Positions 13,025 through 27,581 of a stretch of 64,000 nucleotides of DNA are shown piece after piece. The stretch spans positions 63,854 through 127,853 of the forward strand of contig NW_012236523.1 of the NCBI RefSeq assembly GCF_000787575.1, in the 5' to 3' direction. The first letter of the stretch is position 1. Each line of letters begins with the position of its first letter. The position numbers were made by a program, and so were the translations under genes. The DNA comes from Acytostelium subglobosum LB1 (Eukaryota; Evosea; Eumycetozoa; Acytosteliales; Acytosteliaceae). The notes under the pieces were generated by a model. That model had not been told where the DNA came from. It ran no database searches and was given only the letters and a program-made list of their open reading frames with translations.

Positions 13025-16000
13025 ATGATTGTTAAAACAACAACTACCTTATTGGTATTGTTGTTTGTTTGCATTTGTATCAACAGCAACCGCAATACAG
13101 TATTGGTCAATGCATGGGGCAATGGAGGTCCCCCAAACCCTATTCAACCTACAGGCTCAGTACCATACTTTGATTACAAGGGACATCATTATGAGGTCAT
13201 TCCTGAAAGCCAGGCCACCATCACCAACGTCGATTCGTTCAATCCGCCCCACAGCGATTCCATGAACAGAAAGAGGTAAGTCAACTCACTCACTCACTCA
13301 TTGGTTGGAATGATCCAATGTTGATCGATCACACACTCACCCTCCCCCCACCCCCTCATACACCCATCACACATTGTCCAGATACCTTCTCACATTGGAG
13401 ACATATGATGAGTACATGTTTGTGGTCAATTGGGTCAAGGCCATGTCATCATCATTTCTTGTGGCGCCAACCTTTTGGCTTGGTACCATGACTACCGACA
13501 ATATCTCTTGGTGGTGGGCAAGCGGACACACACGTGGCGCACCATTCTATCAAGACTTCCCCGAGCGCTGCTACCAGTACTGTCCCAACATCACGTTGTC
13601 CTCGGATGCAGGCGCAATCTCCAACTTCTACTTCAACATGAACGAACCAAGCGTGTGGTTGCAGGCCACCCAATCATCGCTCAACTATGTCATCTGGGAG
13701 TATGGTGGCAATGACCCCGAGGACATCACTGTGTCTCGCGAGGAGATGGGCAACACATTTATCAGGTTTGGCAACTTCCTCTCCAACTACCAGGCCAATC
13801 TCTCTGTCGATGGGGTTCCATCAGTCGCATGCACACTGTCACCGTATACTAGCGATGCTCGCTACAACTACAAGTGTGATTTTATGGCCGTCGTTTCACC
13901 CTCCGCTTCGCTCTCTGGCGTCGGCGTCACACTCAAGGTGTTCAACAGCACACAGTCCACGACATATCAGATCACCTTTAACACTCCATGGGTGGCAGCG
14001 ATCAAGGGCAACTCGTCCAACACATTCTTCTATGGCATGGGTCTCAGGTATCTAATGACAAACGCCACCGTCCAGACACCGACGACGACATTTACTATCT
14101 CGTCTGGTAACTATCCCATGCCCAACACTCTTGGATACGATGTCTTCATCACCAACTTTGGTCAAGCCGACATCAAGTATCAACCATTGCACATCACAGA
14201 CATTACAAACAGGTTCTACTCTACTCAAAACAGGCCCACACTATGTATGTTGATTGATTGATTGATTGATCGATCAGGCAAATGGAATCATCCCACCTCC
14301 ACTCACTTACACTCAATCACACTCATACTTCTAGTCGAGGATACAACAGGACTCTTGCATCAATTCCATGGAAGGCAAGTGACACACAGCCAAGCTAAGA
14401 GCATGCTGATACAGACTTCAGTGTTTGGATCAGAGTTCCAGTTGTTTGGAGTGATCACTCCAGTATTGATCACAAACTTTATACCAATGTTCTTTCCCGC
14501 CACCGCGGACAGGAATGCTTGGACCGGTATCACAAGAACGAACAACGTACTCTATTATAACGGCCAGGTTATTGCCTCACCGGGCGCACCAGCCAACGGC
14601 GACGCACCCCTCTACTATCACTCCAAGGCTGACCTCTCCAACAATGACTACTTGGTCAGCACTAACGGCGACCCCAATCAAAAGTTTGGCTTCTTTGCTA
14701 CAGCTGGCCTGCCTAGTGCCACTGCGATTCCCACTGTTATAGTAACATCAACTACTCCTCCCCAGGTCAAGGTGAGCTCCACCGTCAGCTTCCTTATGCC
14801 CTTCTCCGAGTTGAATGCTTACGTCATGAAGGGCAACCAACCCGAGGGCTGGCAGCCATGTCCATCGGCCTATATCAAGGACACCACCATAGCTCTGGTG
14901 AACCTACCACCAGGATCCACTGGAGACTACAACTTCCGTCTAAATGTTACCAATGGCCAAGTTACCAAGACCTACACCTCCACCGTCTCTCTGCCATTAA
15001 GTATGTTGTTTTTGTTGTTGTTGATGTTGTTGCGACCGAGGTCACACACCCCCAGGCACGTCACTAATCACTCAACCCTTACCATACCAACCCGACAACA
15101 GCCGCGATACCAATGATCACAGACATACAAATGGCAATTGGATCAGGTAGTCAGATAACATTGTTTGGCGATTTCTCTGGAAGGAGTGTTATTAGTGTCA
15201 ACATTCCTACGATCAATTGCTTGGGAGGCTTTGACAACAAGATATCATACATTCTCTGCACCAATCCATCACCAATCCCTTATGGAACCTTCTCTGTGAC
15301 CATCGACCTCACCGGAGCAGCCGGTGGAGCCTCACAGACCACCATGGCCTACTTGTGGAATTCTCCCAAGATCAGTCTGGCCCAGATGGTACTTGGTGCG
15401 CGCCAACCACTGGAGGGTGGCCCGGTCCAGATCCAGGGCTCAGGCTTCATTATAGGAGTCACAACTGTCACACTCAAGAACTCGATCAGTCAAGTGGAGT
15501 GCACGAACGTCGTCGTTCTCGATATCAACCACCTCAATTGCACTGCCGGACAGCCGGTGCTCAGCTCCAACATGGCCTTCGAAGTCAAAGTCTACAACGA
15601 CCCCAAAGATGTCTTTGGCTCACAATGGACCACCGTAACATACTATGGCATCGTCTTGGACAAGCCATCATTCAAACAGTCTGGCTCCAGCGGCGCCATC
15701 ACCGGCCAGAACTTTGATCTGTACTCCCCGAGTTGGTCCATCAAGCTCGGTGGTTCCGCGGCAACAAACATCGTCTGCACGGCCATAAGGTGCACATTCG
15801 ATCTCAACTCAGCCATGCTCAGTGGCCAGCTCCAGATCCTCTCCCGACTAAACTTGGCCACGGCTGCCGAGACAGTGGTGCTCACCCCCTTGATCGAGAC
15901 GGGACCCACCGGCCTCCTGAACCCTGGCGCAAAGTCATCGATTGTTGGCATGTTCTTCAACACATTCCAGAACCTGAGGATTAACATCAGCAACAGCCTC

Positions 16001-17977
16001 GTCAATGTTGACTCGTGGACTGGCGTCACGTCCAAGACGCTGACCTTCAATCCACCCAATATCCTCGGCGCCAACCTCGCCCTCACGATCGTGAGCACAT
16101 ATAACGACGTTGTAGCCAGCTCTTTGCCTGTGACCGTTTCGTACCCGGCACCCATCGTCGACACTATTGTGACCAACTCCTTTAGCAACGGTTCGGTGTC
16201 CATTTCAATCTCAGGCAAATTCTTGGCCACGCCCACCAACCTTCCATCCCTCAGCACCGTGTCAACTGTGACGCCAATCACCACCTGGTCTACACTCAGC
16301 TACTCCACGGTTACCGCGATGCTCAGTGGCGTCGACATTCGCTCAACTGAAAATGTCATCTACACTGTCGCCGGCCAACAGTACCATGGCTCTGCCATGA
16401 TCATCAGGCCAGTCATTATCACTCGACCAGAAATCCCCATCCAAGGTGGAAACATCACAATCATTGGATACAACATAGCCATGACCAACTTTGACGGCCT
16501 TCCCATCCTCACCGTCACGATCAACGACACGGCGTGCGCCAACCCCTTGGTCAACACACTTGGCGGCAACAAATTCCGCATGGTCTGTGTCGCACCTCCA
16601 GGCCGCGGCAGCGCCATTCTCAAGATGACCACTGTCCAGAGCAGCGTCGTAACCGCCACCCTGCAGTACATGATGCCCACAATTGACTCTGTCTCGTCTA
16701 CATACTTTGGCGAGCCTGCGCCCGTCACTATATATGGTCGCTACTTCAATCTGTTCAATATGAGCGTGACCATTGGTGGATCGCCCTGCACCAACCCAAC
16801 CCCGGCTCTGAACGGCACACTGATGACTTGCGACTTCAAGTCGGACGTGAAGTACAATGACGACGTCACTCACACACTCTCGGTAAATGCGACATTCGAC
16901 AACACAACAGTGTCGAGAGATGCCTTCATCTACCTGTTCAGGAGCTCTCCCTGTCCCGCGTGCGGCCAACACGGTTCATGCAACACTGGTACTGGCGTAT
17001 GCGACTGCAGCACTGGCTGGACCGGCATTGACTGCAGCCAACAGCTGGCCGTTGGTGGCGAGACCAGTGACCCACCCAAGCTCCCCGACAACAACAAACC
17101 CTCAGAGGTCAAGCTCGGCTCAGTCAGCAAGAAGGTTGAGTTCAACGTAAGTATGACAGAGATTCGCGAGGTCTCTCCCGCGGGTGCCATCATCAAACAG
17201 CGCTTCATCAAGGACATCGCCTGGACCAACGCGGAGCCCGGAGCTGATGGCAGTAACGACACATCGATCACAACATACTTGGGCACGTACAGCGACGACG
17301 CCAAGTTTGTGCTCACGGTCGACACGCAGATCTTCACGGAGGAGAGCACGTACAACTTTGCCGGCGACAATTTCAAGGTGCCCGCCAACTCGATCAAGTA
17401 CACCATCCATCTGGATCAATGGACGTTCAACGACAAACTCAACTCGCTGCGCGTTTTCTTCCTGGCGCAGGCAGGCAGTGGCGCCAATGGATGTGAGCAG
17501 GCCAAGCTGGCCGGCCAGGTGAGCAACTCTCAATCATCGCTGCGTTCGATGGAGATCGTGCAGGGATCGGGCATGCTCAAGGCCTACTACTCGGACAGAA
17601 TGATCATTGATGGTCGTGTGACACATAGTACAGTGGAGCTGGTTGACGAGAGTGATCAGTCGATGGTGGAGCTGAAGCGTGCCAACCCTGACACACTGAG
17701 CGTGCTGACGTCCATCACTGTCAACAACTTTGGCAGCTCGGCCAAGATCGATCCCAACTTTGGTTCTCTGCTCATTCAATCGGATGGCAAGGACAATGGC
17801 GCCTGTGGCAACAAGGATGAGGCCAAGTGGCGCATACCAGTCATCGTGGTGACAGTGGTAGTTGGATCAGTTGCCATCCTAGTTGGCGTCGGTATCGTTG
17901 TAGCCAAGAAGAACTCGCTGCGGTTAAAGATACTACGCAGGGATTTCTCAATCAAGATGCGCAGAAATAAGGATTAA
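13025..17977 (+). CDS. C-type lectin / IPT-TIG / EGF transmembrane protein
   Basis: Four exons (13025-13275, 13382-14244, 14335-15000, 15102-17977) join in phase to 1,551 residues. A signal peptide (MIVKTTTTLLVLLFVCICIN) is followed by a C-type-lectin-like domain (~85-200): LTLETYDEYMFVVNWV, FWLGT, WWWASG and NYVIWEYGG match the WIG, WxW and YxxCEY landmarks. TIG/IPT immunoglobulin-like repeats follow (for example PLEGGPVQIQGSGF, IPIQGGNITIIGYNI). A single EGF-like domain with CDCSTGWTGIDC lies near residue 1210, then a membrane-proximal region, one transmembrane helix (~1507-1528) and a short basic tail. This plan fits a cell-surface adhesion or recognition receptor like dictyostelid TIG proteins. 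Ligand binding by the lectin domain is unproven because typical calcium-site EPN/WND motifs are not obvious. Confidence 0.9.
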
Positions 17978-18759: not shown

Positions 18760-21700
18760 ATGATGCATCATTCATCATCAATACACAACCAAAAGGTGTT
18801 GTTGACTCTGATGGTGTTGGTACTTTTGATGTGCTCATTGGATCCAGTGAGTGCAGTCATTACCAAAATATCATCTAGGTCTTCATGGCTTGGCGGTGGC
18901 ACCTCATTCCAATTGGATGGTACAGGATTTGCCTCTATACCCATCGTACAAATAAGAACCTCTGCTGGTGTTGCCGTACCATTCGCCTTTGTCGGCCAAG
19001 TTGGCACCATCTACACCTACACCGTGCCACCCGAGCCCCCCGGAGGTGGTAAGAAGCGCCACACCAGTCTAGACTTCGCATTCGACATCTTAGAGGGTGC
19101 TGTCAACTTACTCACTGCTGATTTCTCCTATCTTGGTATGTATTCTTTCTGATGGTCTCCAAAAAAGGAAATCAATCAATCAATCAATCAATCAAACTAA
19201 CAAATTCCATACACACTCCAATCACTACATACAATCAATCAATCACTCACTCCCTCACTCACTAACTCATAGAGCCTGAGATCATAGACTTTACTCCTGA
19301 GCAATACTTCCAAGCTGTAAATGGTCGTACCTTAACAATCATNATGGAAACTATCTAAAGAATGACGATTATGATCCAGTCCCTGTCGTCAGGGTGGGCA
19401 CAATTGGCTGTACAGTGAAAGACCACAAGATCACAAAGATCGTATGTACCTTGGGCGACCAGCCAGCAACTGGAGCACTCCCTGTCACAATCACACTCTA
19501 CACTGGCTTTGTCGTCACTGGTCCCAAACAGTTTGATGTCGTTGGTATGTATCCCTCACTCACTCACTCACTAACCCATCATACTGATTGATCAAATCAC
19601 TAACTCACATACTTACAATGAATGAATGTAGATCCTGTCATCGACGACATTGCCCCTGCGTCCATTACTGGTGGTATGGCGCAGGTTATCGCATTGAATG
19701 GTAACTTCCTATTTGATGATCCTCATAACATACAGTCACAGATCACCTTTGGCGGTGAGGACTGTACAAACATTGTGATTGTCAGCTCCAAGCAGATCAC
19801 ATGTACATCGCCCCTCTTTACCGGTGTAGCACCCGGCACGTCCCAGAACAAAGTGCTTGCAATGACCATCGGTCCACAGAACGTCCTATCCGCAATCAAC
19901 CTTGAGGTCTACGGTATGTCACTCATTAATACTTCCAAAAATGATCACTCATATCACTCACTCACACACTCAATCGATCAATCGATTAATCATTCCAGAA
20001 CCGGTAATAACATCTATTCTACCAAAGGAGGGTTTGTCCGCTGGTGGAACGACTATAAGAGTGACTGGATTATTCCTCCAGGAGGTCACCGCCGTGACTA
20101 TTGGTGGATCAGATTGTGCAGTGGATCCAATCTCAGTCACAGCCACTCAGTTTGATTGTGAGACCTCAGCCTACAACCTTGCCGGTGCCAATGATGCCTC
20201 ATTCCCCCTTGTAGCCACAATCGGAGGACAAGACTACCAATCCCCTCCCAGCGAGCAGTTCAAATATTTCAGTGAGTATCCATTCCTTGACGCATGCGTG
20301 TACCCAGCACTAACATGCCCTCTTACCACCCATCAATCAATCAATCAAAGTCCCCGTCATCCAAGCATTGTTACCTATCAACACAATCACAAAGGGTTCT
20401 TACTTGTTGGAGGTACAGGGTCTTAACTTTTATGGTGTGACAGCTGTAAAGGTTGGCCCGGTAACAGCCAATGTATTCAAGCCAACGACCAATGACAAGT
20501 CAATATTCTTTGATGTGGACGCTTCATTGTTGACGGCTGGGAACAACGCCGTCACGGTTGAGATTGGAACTGTCTCGTCCAACGCGATGAACTTCCCCGT
20601 GTTGACTCCGACCCTTGGCGCGTCAGTCCCTGTCGATGGATTCCTCCATACTACCACCCTCATCACCATCCCCATTACCAACTTCCCCACGCCACCCAAC
20701 GGCGCGGCAATCAACACGCTCACCAAGGTGTTCATCAACGCCATTGAGTGCACGGGTTTGGCCATGCCCAGTGCTACACAATTCTCGTGCAATGCCCCCG
20801 TCGCCGCCGCCGCTGGCACCTTCCCCATAACATTCAAGGTTTACGAACAAAACTATGACCCTGCCCAGACCTTCACCTACTTTGACCTCAACATTGCCGG
20901 CCAGACACAGTCGACCACGATGCCCGCCGGTGGTGGAGTGCTTACCCTCAATGGAGCTCATCTCGACTTTGTTCAAACAGTCACCATCAATGCAGTGCCA
21001 GTTGCTGGATGTGCTATAACCGCAGCCCAGATCACATGTCCCATCCCGCCAAACCTTCCCGGCAACTACCCCGTAACAGTGATTGCCAGTGGCGTACCAT
21101 ACATTTCGCCGTTTCCCATCAACTATATTGGACCCAACTTGATCGATATCAGTCCCATCCAGGGTAACTCTAAACGTATCGTACCCATAACACTGGGAGG
21201 CAACAATCTTGGTGCTGTAGCCGCTGCCATCACAATCACTGTGGGTGGTGTGAACTGTCCAAATGTGGTAGTCAAGCCACAAGTCGGTGGTTTGGATCAA
21301 ATAGGTTGTGACGTGCCAATCACTGCCGCCGGTATGCATGCAGTTGTGATCAATGTTGTGCCCGGTGGTGGTGGCCCGGCTGTAGCCTCCATCAACAATG
21401 TACAATACAAGTCCAATGGCCTCGCCTGTCTTTCCCCACCACTTGCCGACGGATCCAACTCACCTGTCGACTGGTGGTTCACCTACAAGCTGCGCAAGAC
21501 CACGAATGCCAAGTACCTCTACATGGACAACACTCGCGACCAACTCGTCAGGCTGACTCATTTGTCCAACGTCAACGGACCACCCTACAGCGCCCTGGCC
21601 GCCACCTTTGATCAATACCACGACTACTTCTTTGCATTCTTCAACGACCAGCAGGGTGGTCGTGACCCCGCCGGCAAGCGTGCCCGCCCGTTCAACTCAC

Positions 21701-24700
21701 CATTCGGCCACGGCCATCTCAAGGGCTTCGTTATCTTCCAGTACAACGCCGCTACGGCGGACTATGAGGGCATCCACGTCTTGCATTCCAACCCAGTGTT
21801 CCCAGCAATCAACGGAAACACCTTCTACAATGTCAACCAACGAATGCAATGGCTGGGCGAGGCCGACAACAACCAGCACTTCTTCTGCTACCCCTTCACC
21901 AGCATCGAGATGCCCTTCAACTACCTTATCCACAACGACGCCAGCATGTACACCAATCGCAACCTGCCCAACCTGGCTGGATGGAACCAGGCCACACAGA
22001 ACACCTTCCCTTTCTTCTACGACTACATGTCACTGTGGCTGGGACTGCCACCACGTATTCAGATCGCACCCGCGCCACCCACCTGCAACCAAGTGTGTTT
22101 CCAACAGGCGTGCGAGGCGGCCATCGCCGCCAACCCCAATGTCATAGACATTTGCTACTGGCAATCGGCCCCATTCAACATTGGCGGCAGGACTGCCAAC
22201 TACTTTATGAAGACAACGATCGAACCCAATAACGTCCCGTTCCCACCCGTCGTAGCGGTCATGCCACCTGCTCTCAGTCGCTTCATTGTGGTCAACAACA
22301 ACAAAAACACATACGATGGTATCGACATCTGGACCGTCGTCGCCAACTCCTACCAACGCATGATGTTCGTTCAAATGTTCTACAAGACTCCAGTCCAAAT
22401 GCTTTCAAGCAATGCCGTCATCAATGTTGGTTACCTTCGTAAGTCATCGACTCGACTGGAGTGGAGTGGAAGTTGGATGGATGGATGAACATCATACTTA
22501 TAATTACCTTGTTGATGATGATTAGATCTACCACCTAACCTGTGTGAGAGGACCTTGAATGGTGCAAATTGGGAGTATTCAGATTATGCATATTCTGGAA
22601 AGTCTAACGAGCACTCCAAACTAGGATTCCCAATGTACCCAGTAGTCGGCGCCAATGCCATGGCAGCCAACGAGAACATGTTCTGTGTTGGTGACTCCAA
22701 CAGACATAACGGACAAGTATGATTGATGACCATCACTCCCCTCCCTCTTCCCAATCGTTCTAACATCACTCACTCACTCAATCAATCAATCAACCAATCA
22801 ATCAAAAGGGTGCAAGAGGTGGAGGTGTGTTGTGTTTCCAACATCCAACTTTGTCATTCCAGTACAGTAGCATGGTTAGGTCGTATAACTCTATTACGAC
22901 AGCCACGGGACTGATGCAGAGACCTTCAGCTGGCGACTCAATGTACCTTAGAGAGGCTATAATACAGCCGTTAAAGTTCACCAGGGGTGCCTGGGCCAAT
23001 GATATCACCTTTGAGATCAGAGAGGCAATCAACGGCGCCGTCACCGCCATGTTGCCACCCTTAATGGGTGTCATAACCTTTGCCACCATGGCCAACCCCT
23101 CCGACGTATCGCCAGAGTTCTTGACGCTGAGGAACAGTTTGGTCAATTGTGGAGGACCGTCCAACAACCTTGGAAGCATCGCACCCCAGGTGAGCATCAG
23201 TGGATACGTCTCAGATGACACATTCGCCATCATGTACGTTGCAGCCGATGTCCAAGTCGCATCGATGTGTGATAGTGACCCCGCCGTGTTCCCACCAGCA
23301 GCTTGCACTCAAGCCAATGCCCGCCGCACTAGGATGCCCGAGACTGTAGCCATGCCACCGCCTCCCCCCCTGGTGTTCCCCAACGCCTATAACCAAGACT
23401 ACCTTGAAACTATGACCCTACGTACATTCGACATCGTGCCCATCAATGATTTCCAGGTCATCCAATTCACCGATGTGTTGCGACGTGTGCTAGTGATGAA
23501 TCCGGCCACTCTGCCCCCGATCCAGTACATTGTTGATGGCGCGGTGCAGGTGCCCTCAGTCCAAACCCAGTATACCATCCGTAAGCTTGCGCCCATCTGT
23601 GAGGAGGAGCTGTCATATGACGTAGTGTTGGCGTACGTGTACCAGCAGTCCAACTTCCCACCACAGGCCCAGACAATCTACATGATCGACACTGCCCTGC
23701 CTAACTGGGCCAACGGTGTGTTGTACGCCATTGCCAAGTACATCTACAACTCGATCCCCGGCGCCTTCGTCAAGACTGGCGCATTCAACCCATGCGTCGT
23801 ACAATACTTCCCGAATATGCCCAACATTGAGACGTACACCGAGCCCAAACCCGTGGACATTACCACGCCATCACAATGGGATCTGTTCTACCGCACGGCT
23901 GAGGCCACATGGGACATGATGTCCATGTCGATCGCCGATGGCAATGGAGGTAGGACTCCGCGTGTCAATAACGCCGACGTCATCCCCTGGCAAACAATCC
24001 TCGCCCAAGTGATCGGGCTCCGCCAGGCCAATGGCGTGACCTCGTTCGCACAGATGTTCGCAATTATGGCCTTGGCCAACCCTGCCTACGATACTCCCAC
24101 CAACAAGCAATCACTCATCAACAACTATTTGGTCGCGCCACCACCTATTGGTGTCCCAGTGCCCAGGCTCTTTGCCCTCCCACACTCCCTCGTTCATGCT
24201 TCCGCACCGCAGATCAACGCTCATGCCGATCGCCTATTCCCCAGCTTGGTTCCCCTGGCCATCGGAGCTCAGTACCTCGAGCAACCCATCCAACAATTGC
24301 TGGATGCACACAAGTCATTCACCAACAGTTCGATATTCTATCTGAGCGACGATGAGATGACCAAGTTGATCCAGTCCATGAGGAAATGGGCCACGATCAC
24401 AGGCGTCAACCAGGCCGTCCAAGTGCTGATTGCCAATCCCTGGTCTCAAACACAGAACCAGCCAATCCAGTTCATCTCGGAGCTGAACCGCGACCAAGTG
24501 GGCAGTGTGATTGATCTATGCTACAACTCAATCAATGTAGACGACACTTTGATTGCGGTCTGCTCGCCAATGACTATCAACTCCATGACCTTCTTCATTG
24601 AGAGCGCCATGGTGTCGGCCGTCTCTTCTCAGGTTCAGTATGGCGACTTCAACGCCTACTTCCTGCCCAAGCCGCCCAACTATAACGGATCCATTGGCAC

Positions 24701-27581
24701 AGAGTATGGTGGTATGGCCATCGCAACGATCAACTCAAAGATCTGTGACATCCAAATGATGAGCTCTGGCGACTTCTTCTCGCACAACTTTGACAACCTG
24801 TGCGCGGGCATCGGACCCGTAGTCGTGAACATCACCAGCACCACAGGCCCAACAGCTGGCGGCGTAACATCCACCATCAATGGCTTCAGATTCAACTCGA
24901 CCCTCAACATCCAGATCGGAGACGACTACCAGGTCGCCGAGCCACAGGTCATCTCACCATGGCAGATTGAGTTCCAAACGCCAGCGGGTGTTGGCACGCG
25001 CTTGGAGTTCCACTTCTTCAGCAACACGACATTGTACAATCTCCAGCGCACCAGGTTCTACTTCTCGTTCGATGCGCCCACCGTCACAGACGTGGCACCC
25101 AACACACTTGACAGCCAGGGAGGTACGATGCTCACGATCACTGGAGACAACTTTGGCAGCGACCCATTCTCTGTGGACGTCACAATCGATGAAAGCACAC
25201 CGTGCTACCCTGTCGTGGGCATCACGACCACCATGTTGGCATGCTACTCACCGTCGGGCGTCGGCCAGGACAAGACGGTTACGGTGAAGGTCGGAGGCCA
25301 GACATCAAAGTTCACGATTGAGACCATCCCCACTATGTCCTTTGACTACCAGGCACCAGAACTTCAACAATTCTTGCCCCCATCAGCGGATGCTGGTGAC
25401 TTTGTTGTGATCCATGGTGATGGATTCGGTTCGATCGCTGATGGATACGGCCCACCCATGGTGTTCATGGGAGATCAGTTGCTCCAAGTGGTCGACTACA
25501 GCAACACATACATCAAGGTGCGTTTGGATGAGGGAGTCGGAAGCAATCAGAGCATTACCATTCAGGCTGGCGATCAATCATCAATCTCAAACACTCAGTT
25601 CGGATACCTCCCACCCTTGATCACTGGCGTCATCCAGTCCGACCAGCTGTCCACCGCAGGTGGCGCAGTCCAGATCATCGGTGAGGGTTGGGGATTGGCC
25701 GCTACAGAGATCGACTACATCCGCATCGGCAACATTGAACTCGCCTACTGCAATCCCTTTGACACGTTCGTTGAGTGTCTAGTGCCCCCAGGTGTTGGAG
25801 CCAAGCTACCCATAACAGCATCAGTTGGTGGACAAGTGGCGACATACGGAGCATATGACAACTATGTATCATACGCGCCCCCAGTCATCACTGGCTACCG
25901 ATTCTTCAACAATGGCACCACAAACATGATCATGTTGATGGGTCGTAACTTCTTCCCCGCGGCTGCCGGTGTCAAATGGACAAGATCATCATACATCGAT
26001 ATCAAGTACACTGACAACAGTATACTAAAGTGCACCACTGGATTCGTCAACAGCTCATACGCTCAATGTCCCCTGACATCTACCGTCGCCAGTCTGATCA
26101 TGTCCGTGGGCGGACAACTCTCTGATGATTTGTACATCAGCAACTCCACATACCAGTTCCAACTGTTCGTGTTCAATGATACCAATAATGATGGAGTGTA
26201 CAACTCAAGCAGTGACCCGCCAATGGCCAACGTTGCCGTTACCCTCATCAACCCACTGGGTGCCGCTCAAACATTCATCTCTAGTGCCTCTGGCTACGTC
26301 ATTGGCATGATCGTCCAGAATGAGTACGTGGTCTCAATCAACACCAGCTCCTACTCCAAAGCATTCCCTTCGTTAAACAACATAACCATCGACTTCTACG
26401 AGAACGTCAACCTCACCATCCCCGTAACCAACGCCAACATCTACGGTTGCATTGGCACCCTCTTCTCCGAACGTGCAGTCATGCAAGTACAATGGGGATT
26501 GACACAAATATCCAACTGGGACTTCTGTGATACAGACTACAAGGTCTACTGTAACAACCCCATCACCAGAACACATGTAAGTACCCTTGCCCTCAACCCT
26601 CGCCCAAACCCTGACCCTAACCCTCGCCCTCGCCCTCGCCCCAAACCTAACTAGTTCCCAGATGGCTGTATCCCATTGTTTAGTAACAACACGGTTAATG
26701 TTAGATACAGTACTACATTGACCATCAATAACTACATGGACAATAACATGACTGGAAGATACACTGGCATTGCACCACCCCAGCAAGCATACTTCTTCGT
26801 ACTCACGTACTCTTGGAATGGAATTAGCACTTGGTCAAATACTATCACGCCCTCGATCTCTGGTGTCTACACGGACGCCACCATCCCGCCAGTGCCCGTC
26901 AACATCACCTTCTGGCCTCGAACCAACTCACTCATACCAATCGTCAACAGACATGTGTTCAACGTGCCCGCAACCAAGGAGGTATCATTCCACTCTGTAT
27001 ACTTTGGATTCTACGACGCGTACTCCAACGCCTCCAACACATTGTATCCACCATCATTGTTCTCCCAACTTGATGGAACCAGGGGAGACACGATGAGTCT
27101 GCCACTGGGCAAGTACAACGTAGCATCACTGCTTGCCGAATACTCATTTGTCAACAACACTCGATCATTCTTTGGCAACACAACATTCTACAACGTGTAT
27201 GTCTACACCAATGACAGCGCCAACAGTGTCATCACTGGTATACCGACGAATGGTATCGTCAACCTTGTGCCCATGGCCCAACCGCCCATCGGTGTCCAGT
27301 TTGAGATCTCCTCATCGACGCTGTTCAGCTTCCTCACGCCATCCAGCGCACTGAACACTCAAGGCCAGAATGTAACATTCGCAACACCCTACATATTTGA
27401 GCAACCAGTCTACTCGGTCGATGTCCAAGGAGTGTCAACAGTGATACCCTGCTCGACCAATGCTATACAACAGTCAACATGTAACTTCCCTGCCAACAGT
27501 GGTGGACAACATAACATCACACTGACATGGCGTGGACTGCCACTCTACCAGACATATCCAGTTTGGTATAAATCCAGTTAA
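18760..27581 (+). CDS. Secreted giant TIG-repeat protein with embedded DNase II domain
   Basis: Eight exons (18760-19135, 19273-19544, 19632-19913, 19999-20271, 20351-22438, 22526-22716, 22809-26576, 26655-27581) form one gene of ~2,725 residues. All junctions keep phase except for one undetermined base at 19343. A signal peptide (VLLTLMVLVLLMCSLDPVSA) leads into TIG repeats. Residues ~759-1190 are a DNase II domain: CLSPPLADGSNSPVDWWFTYKL, GHLKG (His857-x-Lys859), LHSNPVFP, EHSK (His1127-x-Lys1129), FCVGDSNRHNGQ and GARGGGVLCFQHP. Both HxK motifs that form the acid-nuclease active site are kept. A ~650-residue region without a recognised family follows, then more TIG repeats, an SdrD-B-like module (NDTNNDGVYNSSSDPP) and a C-terminal part with no membrane anchor. 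It is inferred to be a secreted or lysosomal adhesin-nuclease. Confidence 0.88.
19343..19343. other. Undetermined base (N) breaking frame
   Basis: A single N sits in exon 2 of the TIG-DNase II gene. Read literally, the frame meets a stop soon after. Exactly one extra base here restores the TIG strand continuation (GNYLKNDDYDPVPVVRVGT) and the phase of the next exon. It is an assembly artefact, not a biological lesion. Confidence 0.85.
26589..26650 (+). repeat. CCCTNR-rich intronic repeat
   Basis: The 78-base last intron of the TIG-DNase II gene consists mostly of CCCTCGCC, CCCTGACC and CCCTAACC hexamer-like units. It resembles degenerate telomere-type repeat and is unlike the TCAA-rich introns elsewhere. 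Confidence 0.7.

What the first reader, a model, noticed from the sequence alone, without database searches (positions are those of the whole stretch)
21416..22896. DNase II enzyme embedded in a giant secreted TIG-repeat protein
Exons 5-7 of the gene at 18760-27581 encode a full DNase II domain with both HxK catalytic motifs (GHLKG and EHSK) and the GDxNR...RGGG block. TIG repeats come before and after it in one signal-peptide protein. DNase II is normally a stand-alone lysosomal nuclease of about 350 residues. I know of no described TIG-DNase II fusion. A plausible use is degrading bacterial or extracellular DNA while held in a cell-surface or matrix scaffold. Phase agreement at every junction argues against two merged genes.
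Basis: partly seen in the sequence, partly recalled or inferred. Interest (0 to 1): 0.8.

Follow-up and report, generated by a model that had tools for sequence, protein, structure and literature searches.

The report
Giant secreted protein carrying DNase II
A soil social amoeba encodes a very large, apparently secreted protein in which a DNA-cutting enzyme, normally a small protein on its own, sits in the middle of a rod of repeated domains; it belongs to a family found in related amoebae whose function appears unstudied.

Summary
Confirmed. The window is Acytostelium subglobosum LB1. The gene at 18760-27581 has eight exons and reads as about 2,724 residues: signal-peptide-like N-terminus, TIG repeats, a complete DNase II domain, a ~600-residue conserved middle domain, more TIG repeats and a C-terminal tail. 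The spliced domain scores 105.8 bits against Pfam DNase_II (cut-off 23). It is not two merged genes: two paralogs are colinear end to end (71.6% and 60.6% identity) and share all seven introns by position and phase. Against the nearer paralog all parts show purifying selection. It is not a one-off: 28 TIG+DNase_II proteins, the window's own included, come from Acytostelium, Heterostelium album, Cavenderia fasciculata and unnamed EukProt sources. The two HxK motifs are intact in 27 and 26 of 28. New here: the middle domain accompanies the TIG-embedded intact DNase II and may have a metallopeptidase-like fold without the zinc motif (tentative); and the genome holds a second, catalytically degenerate TIG-DNase II class, head-to-head with an intact one at two loci, perhaps three. 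The window protein shows no membrane anchor. Digestion of extracellular or phagosomal nucleic acid is inferred, not shown.

The parts
18760..19135 (+). Exon 1: start codon, signal-peptide-like N-terminus, first TIG-like stretch
   Evidence: TIG 15.4 bits, below the cut-off of 20.9 when scored alone
19273..19544 (+). Exon 2: TIG; holds one N (19343) with a frame shift, probably an assembly blemish
   Evidence: paralog exon 2 models are 270, 270, 270 and 273 bases
19632..19913 (+). Exon 3: TIG
   Evidence: 29.4 bits
19999..20271 (+). Exon 4: TIG
   Evidence: 50.7 bits
20351..22438 (+). Exon 5: TIG stretches (four at E 1 or better, two at E 0.001 or better), then the first half of DNase II
   Evidence: TIG 68.9 bits, DNase_II 62.1 bits on this exon alone
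21412..22438 (+). DNase II domain, N-terminal half and linker
   Evidence: first HxK motif at 21712-21726
21712..21726 (+). First catalytic motif GHLKG
   Evidence: read; H and K each in 27 of 28 proteins
22526..22716 (+). Exon 6: second catalytic motif EHSKL (22609-22623) and CVGDSNR (22684-22704)
   Evidence: read; H in 27 of 28, K in 26 of 28 proteins
22809..26576 (+). Exon 7: end of DNase II (RGGG at 22815-22826), middle domain, C-terminal TIG repeats
22809..22976 (+). DNase II domain, C-terminal end (Pfam match ends at about 22892; the rest by my cut)
   Evidence: Pfam match to residue 28 of exon 7, 11.9 bits alone; alignment
23040..24830 (+). Conserved middle domain; possible thermolysin-like fold without HExxH; [ED]ExxY and NWxN motifs
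24831..26576 (+). C-terminal TIG repeats (four stretches at E 1 or better) and a sub-threshold SdrD_B-like stretch
26655..27581 (+). Exon 8: C-terminal region, no Pfam match, stop codon

Best explanation
A single gene encodes a giant, probably secreted nuclease. A signal peptide sends it into the secretory pathway. IPT/TIG repeats form a rod on both sides of a DNase II domain of the phospholipase D superfamily, whose two HxK motifs would form one metal-independent active site that cuts nucleic acid through a phospho-histidine intermediate. The middle domain, which accompanies the intact TIG-embedded nuclease and may be a metallopeptidase fold without its zinc ligands, probably serves as a binding or regulatory module. 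The likely use is to digest DNA (and perhaps RNA) of prey bacteria or of the amoeba's surroundings, outside the cell or in acidified phagosomes. Shown here: the fusion, the family, intact catalytic residues, purifying selection. Inferred: secretion, enzyme activity, substrate, place of action, fold and role of the middle domain.
Against: No activity, expression or localisation data. The P0004 model has mean pLDDT 70, with stretches under 50 next to the catalytic motifs; a paralog, not the window protein, was modelled. Sequence similarity to the solved DNase II is weak (E 3.3e-05). DNase II enzymes known from other organisms work at acid pH (passages of PMC11430429 and PMC9208542), which does not favour open soil water as the place of action. 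Secretion rests on hydropathy only, and a signal-like N-terminus was not seen in every one of the 28, perhaps through faulty gene models.
Confidence: 0.72

Rival explanations
1. The same protein is a phagolysosomal enzyme: it enters the secretory pathway, is sorted to phagosomes and digests bacterial nucleic acid there at acid pH, with TIG repeats binding prey surfaces.
For: Known DNase II enzymes have an acid optimum and are mostly lysosomal (PMC9208542 and PMC11430429, passages). No membrane anchor in the window protein fits a soluble luminal protein as well as an extracellular one.
Against: The genome already has two stand-alone DNase II genes with intact motifs that could do this. Long TIG rods are, as I recall, typical of extracellular proteins.
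Confidence: 0.35
2. The domain no longer cuts nucleic acid; it is a DNA-binding or structural module.
For: A second class in the same genome has lost the motifs: at two loci (C49a, C45a) both are gone in the alignment, at two more (C37a, C45d) motif loss was read by eye on partial frames, so degenerate forms persist.
Against: Catalytic H and K kept in 26-27 of 28 proteins and in 7 of 7 class A loci of this genome, the window included.
Confidence: 0.1
3. Two neighbouring genes were merged by the reader's exon model.
For: No RNA reads were examined.
Against: Exon 5 alone holds TIG repeats and half of DNase II in one open frame; exon 7 alone holds the end of DNase II, the middle domain and TIG. 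Colinear paralogs with the same introns. Database gene models in three genera hold both domains and match the middle domain.
Confidence: 0.02
4. The preferred substrate is RNA or another phosphodiester, not DNA.
For: DNase II was reported to digest RNA efficiently at acid pH (PMC11430429, abstract and passages). The class A domain is longer than the stand-alone enzymes (468 residues against 342 and 360 as I cut them).
Against: No direct evidence either way; the motif residues match stand-alone DNase II.
Confidence: 0.2

Closest known systems
Deoxyribonuclease II (Pfam PF03265; solved example 5i3e/5unb, Burkholderia thailandensis)
   Same: Pfam match far above cut-off, both HxK motifs, CVGDxNR and RGGG blocks, predicted fold (paralog model)
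   Different: Embedded in a protein of about 2,724 residues; domain about 110-125 residues longer than this genome's stand-alone enzymes as cut; joined to TIG repeats and a middle domain
Dictyostelid IPT/TIG protein family (OG5_153020 in Urushihara et al. 2015, PMC4334915; sizes D. discoideum 9, A. subglobosum 43, P. pallidum 35, D. fasciculatum 50; one section and passages read)
   Same: TIG-domain proteins expanded in the same lineages
   Different: That family's description names EGF-like and C-type lectin domains; 'DNase' and 'deoxyribonuclease' do not occur in the paper's main text. Whether the window gene is in that group was not tested
Lineage-specific gene expansions of dictyostelids with GO term 'deoxyribonuclease II activity' (Luna and Chain 2021, PMC8535579; abstract, section 3.5 and passages read)
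   Same: Names deoxyribonuclease II activity among GO terms enriched in expansions shared by several dictyostelid species; probably includes relatives of this family
   Different: Only the GO term in what I saw; 'DNase' does not occur and 'TIG' occurs only in a reference
Thermolysin-type (M4/M1, gluzincin) metallopeptidases
   Different: No HExxH in any of the 26 proteins aligned; 6% identity; Foldseek itself found nothing below E 0.36

Membership tests
DNase II (PF03265) | Profile match over curated cut-off | tested here: met
   105.8 bits, cut-off 23
DNase II (PF03265) | Two HxK catalytic motifs, one in each half | tested here: met
   GHLKG and EHSKL in the window; aligned with the stand-alone enzymes L001 and L002
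DNase II (PF03265) | Pseudodimeric DNase II fold | tested here: met
DNase II (PF03265) | Metal-independent nuclease activity with acid optimum | not testable with these tools
   needs protein
DNase II (PF03265) | Stand-alone enzyme of about 350 residues (usual, not strictly defining) | tested here: not met
   Embedded in about 2,724 residues
IPT/TIG repeat proteins (PF01833) | Multiple TIG domains over cut-off | tested here: met
Dictyostelid Tgr-type membrane TIG adhesins (recalled) | Transmembrane segment | tested here: not met
   no hydrophobic stretch besides the N-terminus in the window protein
Thermolysin-like metallopeptidases, for the middle domain | HExxH zinc motif | tested here: not met
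   absent in 26 of 26 proteins aligned, the window's own included
Thermolysin-like metallopeptidases, for the middle domain | Sequence profile match | tested here: not met
   no Pfam peptidase match to the window stretch; Peptidase_M4_C has no match in the genome
Thermolysin-like metallopeptidases, for the middle domain | Fold | tested here: inconclusive

The most novel reading that the evidence does not exclude
The branch of dictyostelids with Acytostelium, Heterostelium and Cavenderia evolved a multigene extracellular weapon or feeding system: TIG-rod proteins that carry an active DNase II joined to a pseudo-metallopeptidase, together with a second set of TIG proteins whose DNase II domain is catalytically degenerate, some of them encoded head-to-head with an active one so that enzyme and pseudoenzyme are made together, the pseudoenzyme acting as partner, decoy or DNA-holding subunit.
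Probability: 0.25. Interest if true: 0.78.

Novelty: new variant of a known kind. Interest (0 to 1): 0.6.

Why it matters
Social amoebae live by eating bacteria, and D. discoideum is reported to cast DNA nets (PMC4773522, abstract in a listing and passages). A conserved family of secreted-type nucleases in their relatives could clear biofilm DNA, recycle nets, or feed on nucleic acid. It is also a new context for DNase II, usually seen as a small lysosomal enzyme, and offers natural active and inactive forms for study. The domain combination is already visible in database annotation, but no paper describing it was found.

Tried and rejected
Merged-gene reading: rejected. Chance motif match: rejected. 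Search of the 470-residue domain alone in the protein database gave nothing, probably because only candidates of similar length are considered; the longer query worked. The solved-structure search with the middle domain found nothing at E 10; NCBIfam found nothing over cut-off. Profile comparison of the middle domain with two M1 peptidase frames from the same genome found no similarity; a weak test. Peptidase_M4_C: no match in the genome. Foldseek on the whole paralog model listed mostly Ig- and IPT-type chains and no DNase II in the 50 rows shown; the second-look aligner put DNase II first.

Weak spots. Spliced models of the class B loci and of C36 guided by the window protein were poor, with many spurious introns, so motif loss was also read by eye from open frames: C49a and C45a over the whole domain, C37a in the first half only, C45d from two overlapping frames; C36 was seen in the second half only and keeps an HEK. 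C37b and C45c models have doubtful introns outside the DNase II part.

Dropped rows. The tree used 30 rows; P0001 (same as the window) and P0010, P0011, P0016, P0019, P0023 (gapped or cut domains) were left out, as were C45d and C36. The middle-domain alignment A2 used 26 of 28 proteins, without P0011 and P0028. Exceptions in the motif counts: first HxK, P0010; second HxK, P0016 and P0023; CVGDxNR, P0011, P0016 and P0023; RGGG, P0011, P0016 and P0019. They may be gene-model faults; not checked.

Paper searches. Those joining DNase II with dictyostelid or TIG terms gave no paper; this covers open-licence PMC papers only.

Full report
What is there. The gene at 18760-27581 (+) has eight exons and reads as about 2,724 residues. 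The order is: signal-peptide-like N-terminus; TIG repeats in exons 1-5; DNase II (residues about 755-1216) over exons 5-7; a middle domain (about 1230-1826); TIG repeats; a C-terminal region without Pfam match. TIG stretches number about eight before and four after DNase II at the lenient limit of E 1; at E 0.001 exon 5 has two and exon 7 three. The one fault is a single N in exon 2 with a frame shift, which four paralog models do not share (exon 2 of 270, 270, 270 and 273 bases). The organism is Acytostelium subglobosum LB1; the gene is deposited as SAMD00019534_054420, a hypothetical protein of 2,688 residues.

Is it real. The spliced domain scores 105.8 bits against PF03265, cut-off 23. Searching the 30.7 Mb genome with that profile gave 17 matches, which I group into 14 loci: two stand-alone enzymes (about 330 bits; open frames of 408 and 360 residues) and 12 others. 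In 11 of the 12, TIG matches lie on the same strand in the same region (150 of 397 candidates scored); the exception is C36. Whether TIG and DNase II belong to one gene was modelled for the class A loci below and seen in one open frame for C49a and C45a; for C37a and C45d it rests on adjacency.

One gene, not two. Spliced alignment of the full protein to paralogous loci gave C51b at 71.6% identity over 2,720 residues and C51a at 60.6% over 2,705, with all seven window introns at the same position and phase; C49b and C44 share three of seven, C45c two. The alignments are guided by the window protein, but the introns must exist in the paralog DNA. dN and dS against C51b are 0.21/0.77 (N-terminal TIG part), 0.21/0.75 (DNase II), 0.20/0.73 (middle), 0.14/0.56 (C-terminal part): purifying selection throughout. 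Against the three more distant paralogs tested dS is near or at saturation.

The family. Two database searches gave 28 distinct proteins with both Pfam domains, the window's own (P0001) among them: A. subglobosum 5, Heterostelium album 14, Cavenderia fasciculata 3, unnamed EukProt sources 6. All 28 match the middle domain, P0028 only weakly and in part. A tree of 30 DNase II domains puts the 25 class A rows, from all three genera, together with support 95/93, which suggests that the fusion predates the split of these genera. Long branches (P0028, C37b, the class B and stand-alone rows) make the base of the tree unsure. No D. discoideum protein is among the named hits.

Two classes. Seven loci of the genome (window C47, C51a, C51b, C44, C49b, C45c, C37b) keep both HxK motifs, and a search with the middle domain finds exactly these seven (11 matches); the two stand-alone enzymes, also with intact motifs, have no middle-domain match. 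Four others (C49a, C45a, C37a, C45d) have no HxK at the aligned places that could be read and no middle-domain match. C36 is partial. Two class B genes lie head-to-head with a class A gene: C37a start 315525 (-) and C37b start 316497 (+); C45d start 314841 (-) and C45c start 315710 (+). C49a (-) and C49b (+) have the same arrangement, but the start of C49a was not found. The starts are the best signal-peptide-like ATGs, not mapped.

How it may work. DNase II enzymes cut without cofactor, at acid pH, leaving 5'-OH and 3'-phosphate ends (PMC9208542, passages); one paper reports efficient RNA cutting too (PMC11430429, abstract and passages). The intact motifs suggest the same chemistry here. The TIG rods and the lack of a membrane anchor in the window protein suggest a soluble secreted or luminal protein that may bind matrix or prey surfaces through its rods. 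Place and substrate are inference.

What was known. TIG family expansion in these lineages is published (PMC4334915, one section and passages), as is deoxyribonuclease II activity as a GO term enriched among dictyostelid gene expansions (PMC8535579, abstract, one section and passages). The domain combination is visible in database annotation. No paper found joins the two.

Noticed in passing
window 23040-24830: Conserved ~600-residue domain without Pfam family, beside the intact TIG-embedded DNase II; possible thermolysin-like fold without HExxH, with [ED]ExxY and NWxN motifs
   Followed up: partly
L021/L022 (C37), L025/L026 (C45), L018-L020 (C49): Catalytically degenerate TIG-DNase II genes lie head-to-head with intact ones at two loci, perhaps three
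   Followed up: partly
L018 3365-10000 (-), part of a 3,404-residue open frame of C49: Open frame with 11 TIG stretches (E 0.1 or better) and a DNase II domain of 105 bits whose HxK motifs are replaced
   Followed up: partly
window 19343: Single N with a frame shift in exon 2; the deposited protein lacks the stretch around it
   Followed up: yes
window 15068-17977 (+): Upstream open frame with ComC supersandwich and EGF matches, perhaps another surface-type protein
   Followed up: no
P0006, P0012, P0020: Database models with an extra actin, Nudix or presenilin domain are probably neighbouring genes merged by gene prediction
   Followed up: no
L033 7378-7884 (-) (C36): Second half of a DNase II domain with an HEK and CLGDSNR; no TIG match listed for that contig
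   Followed up: no
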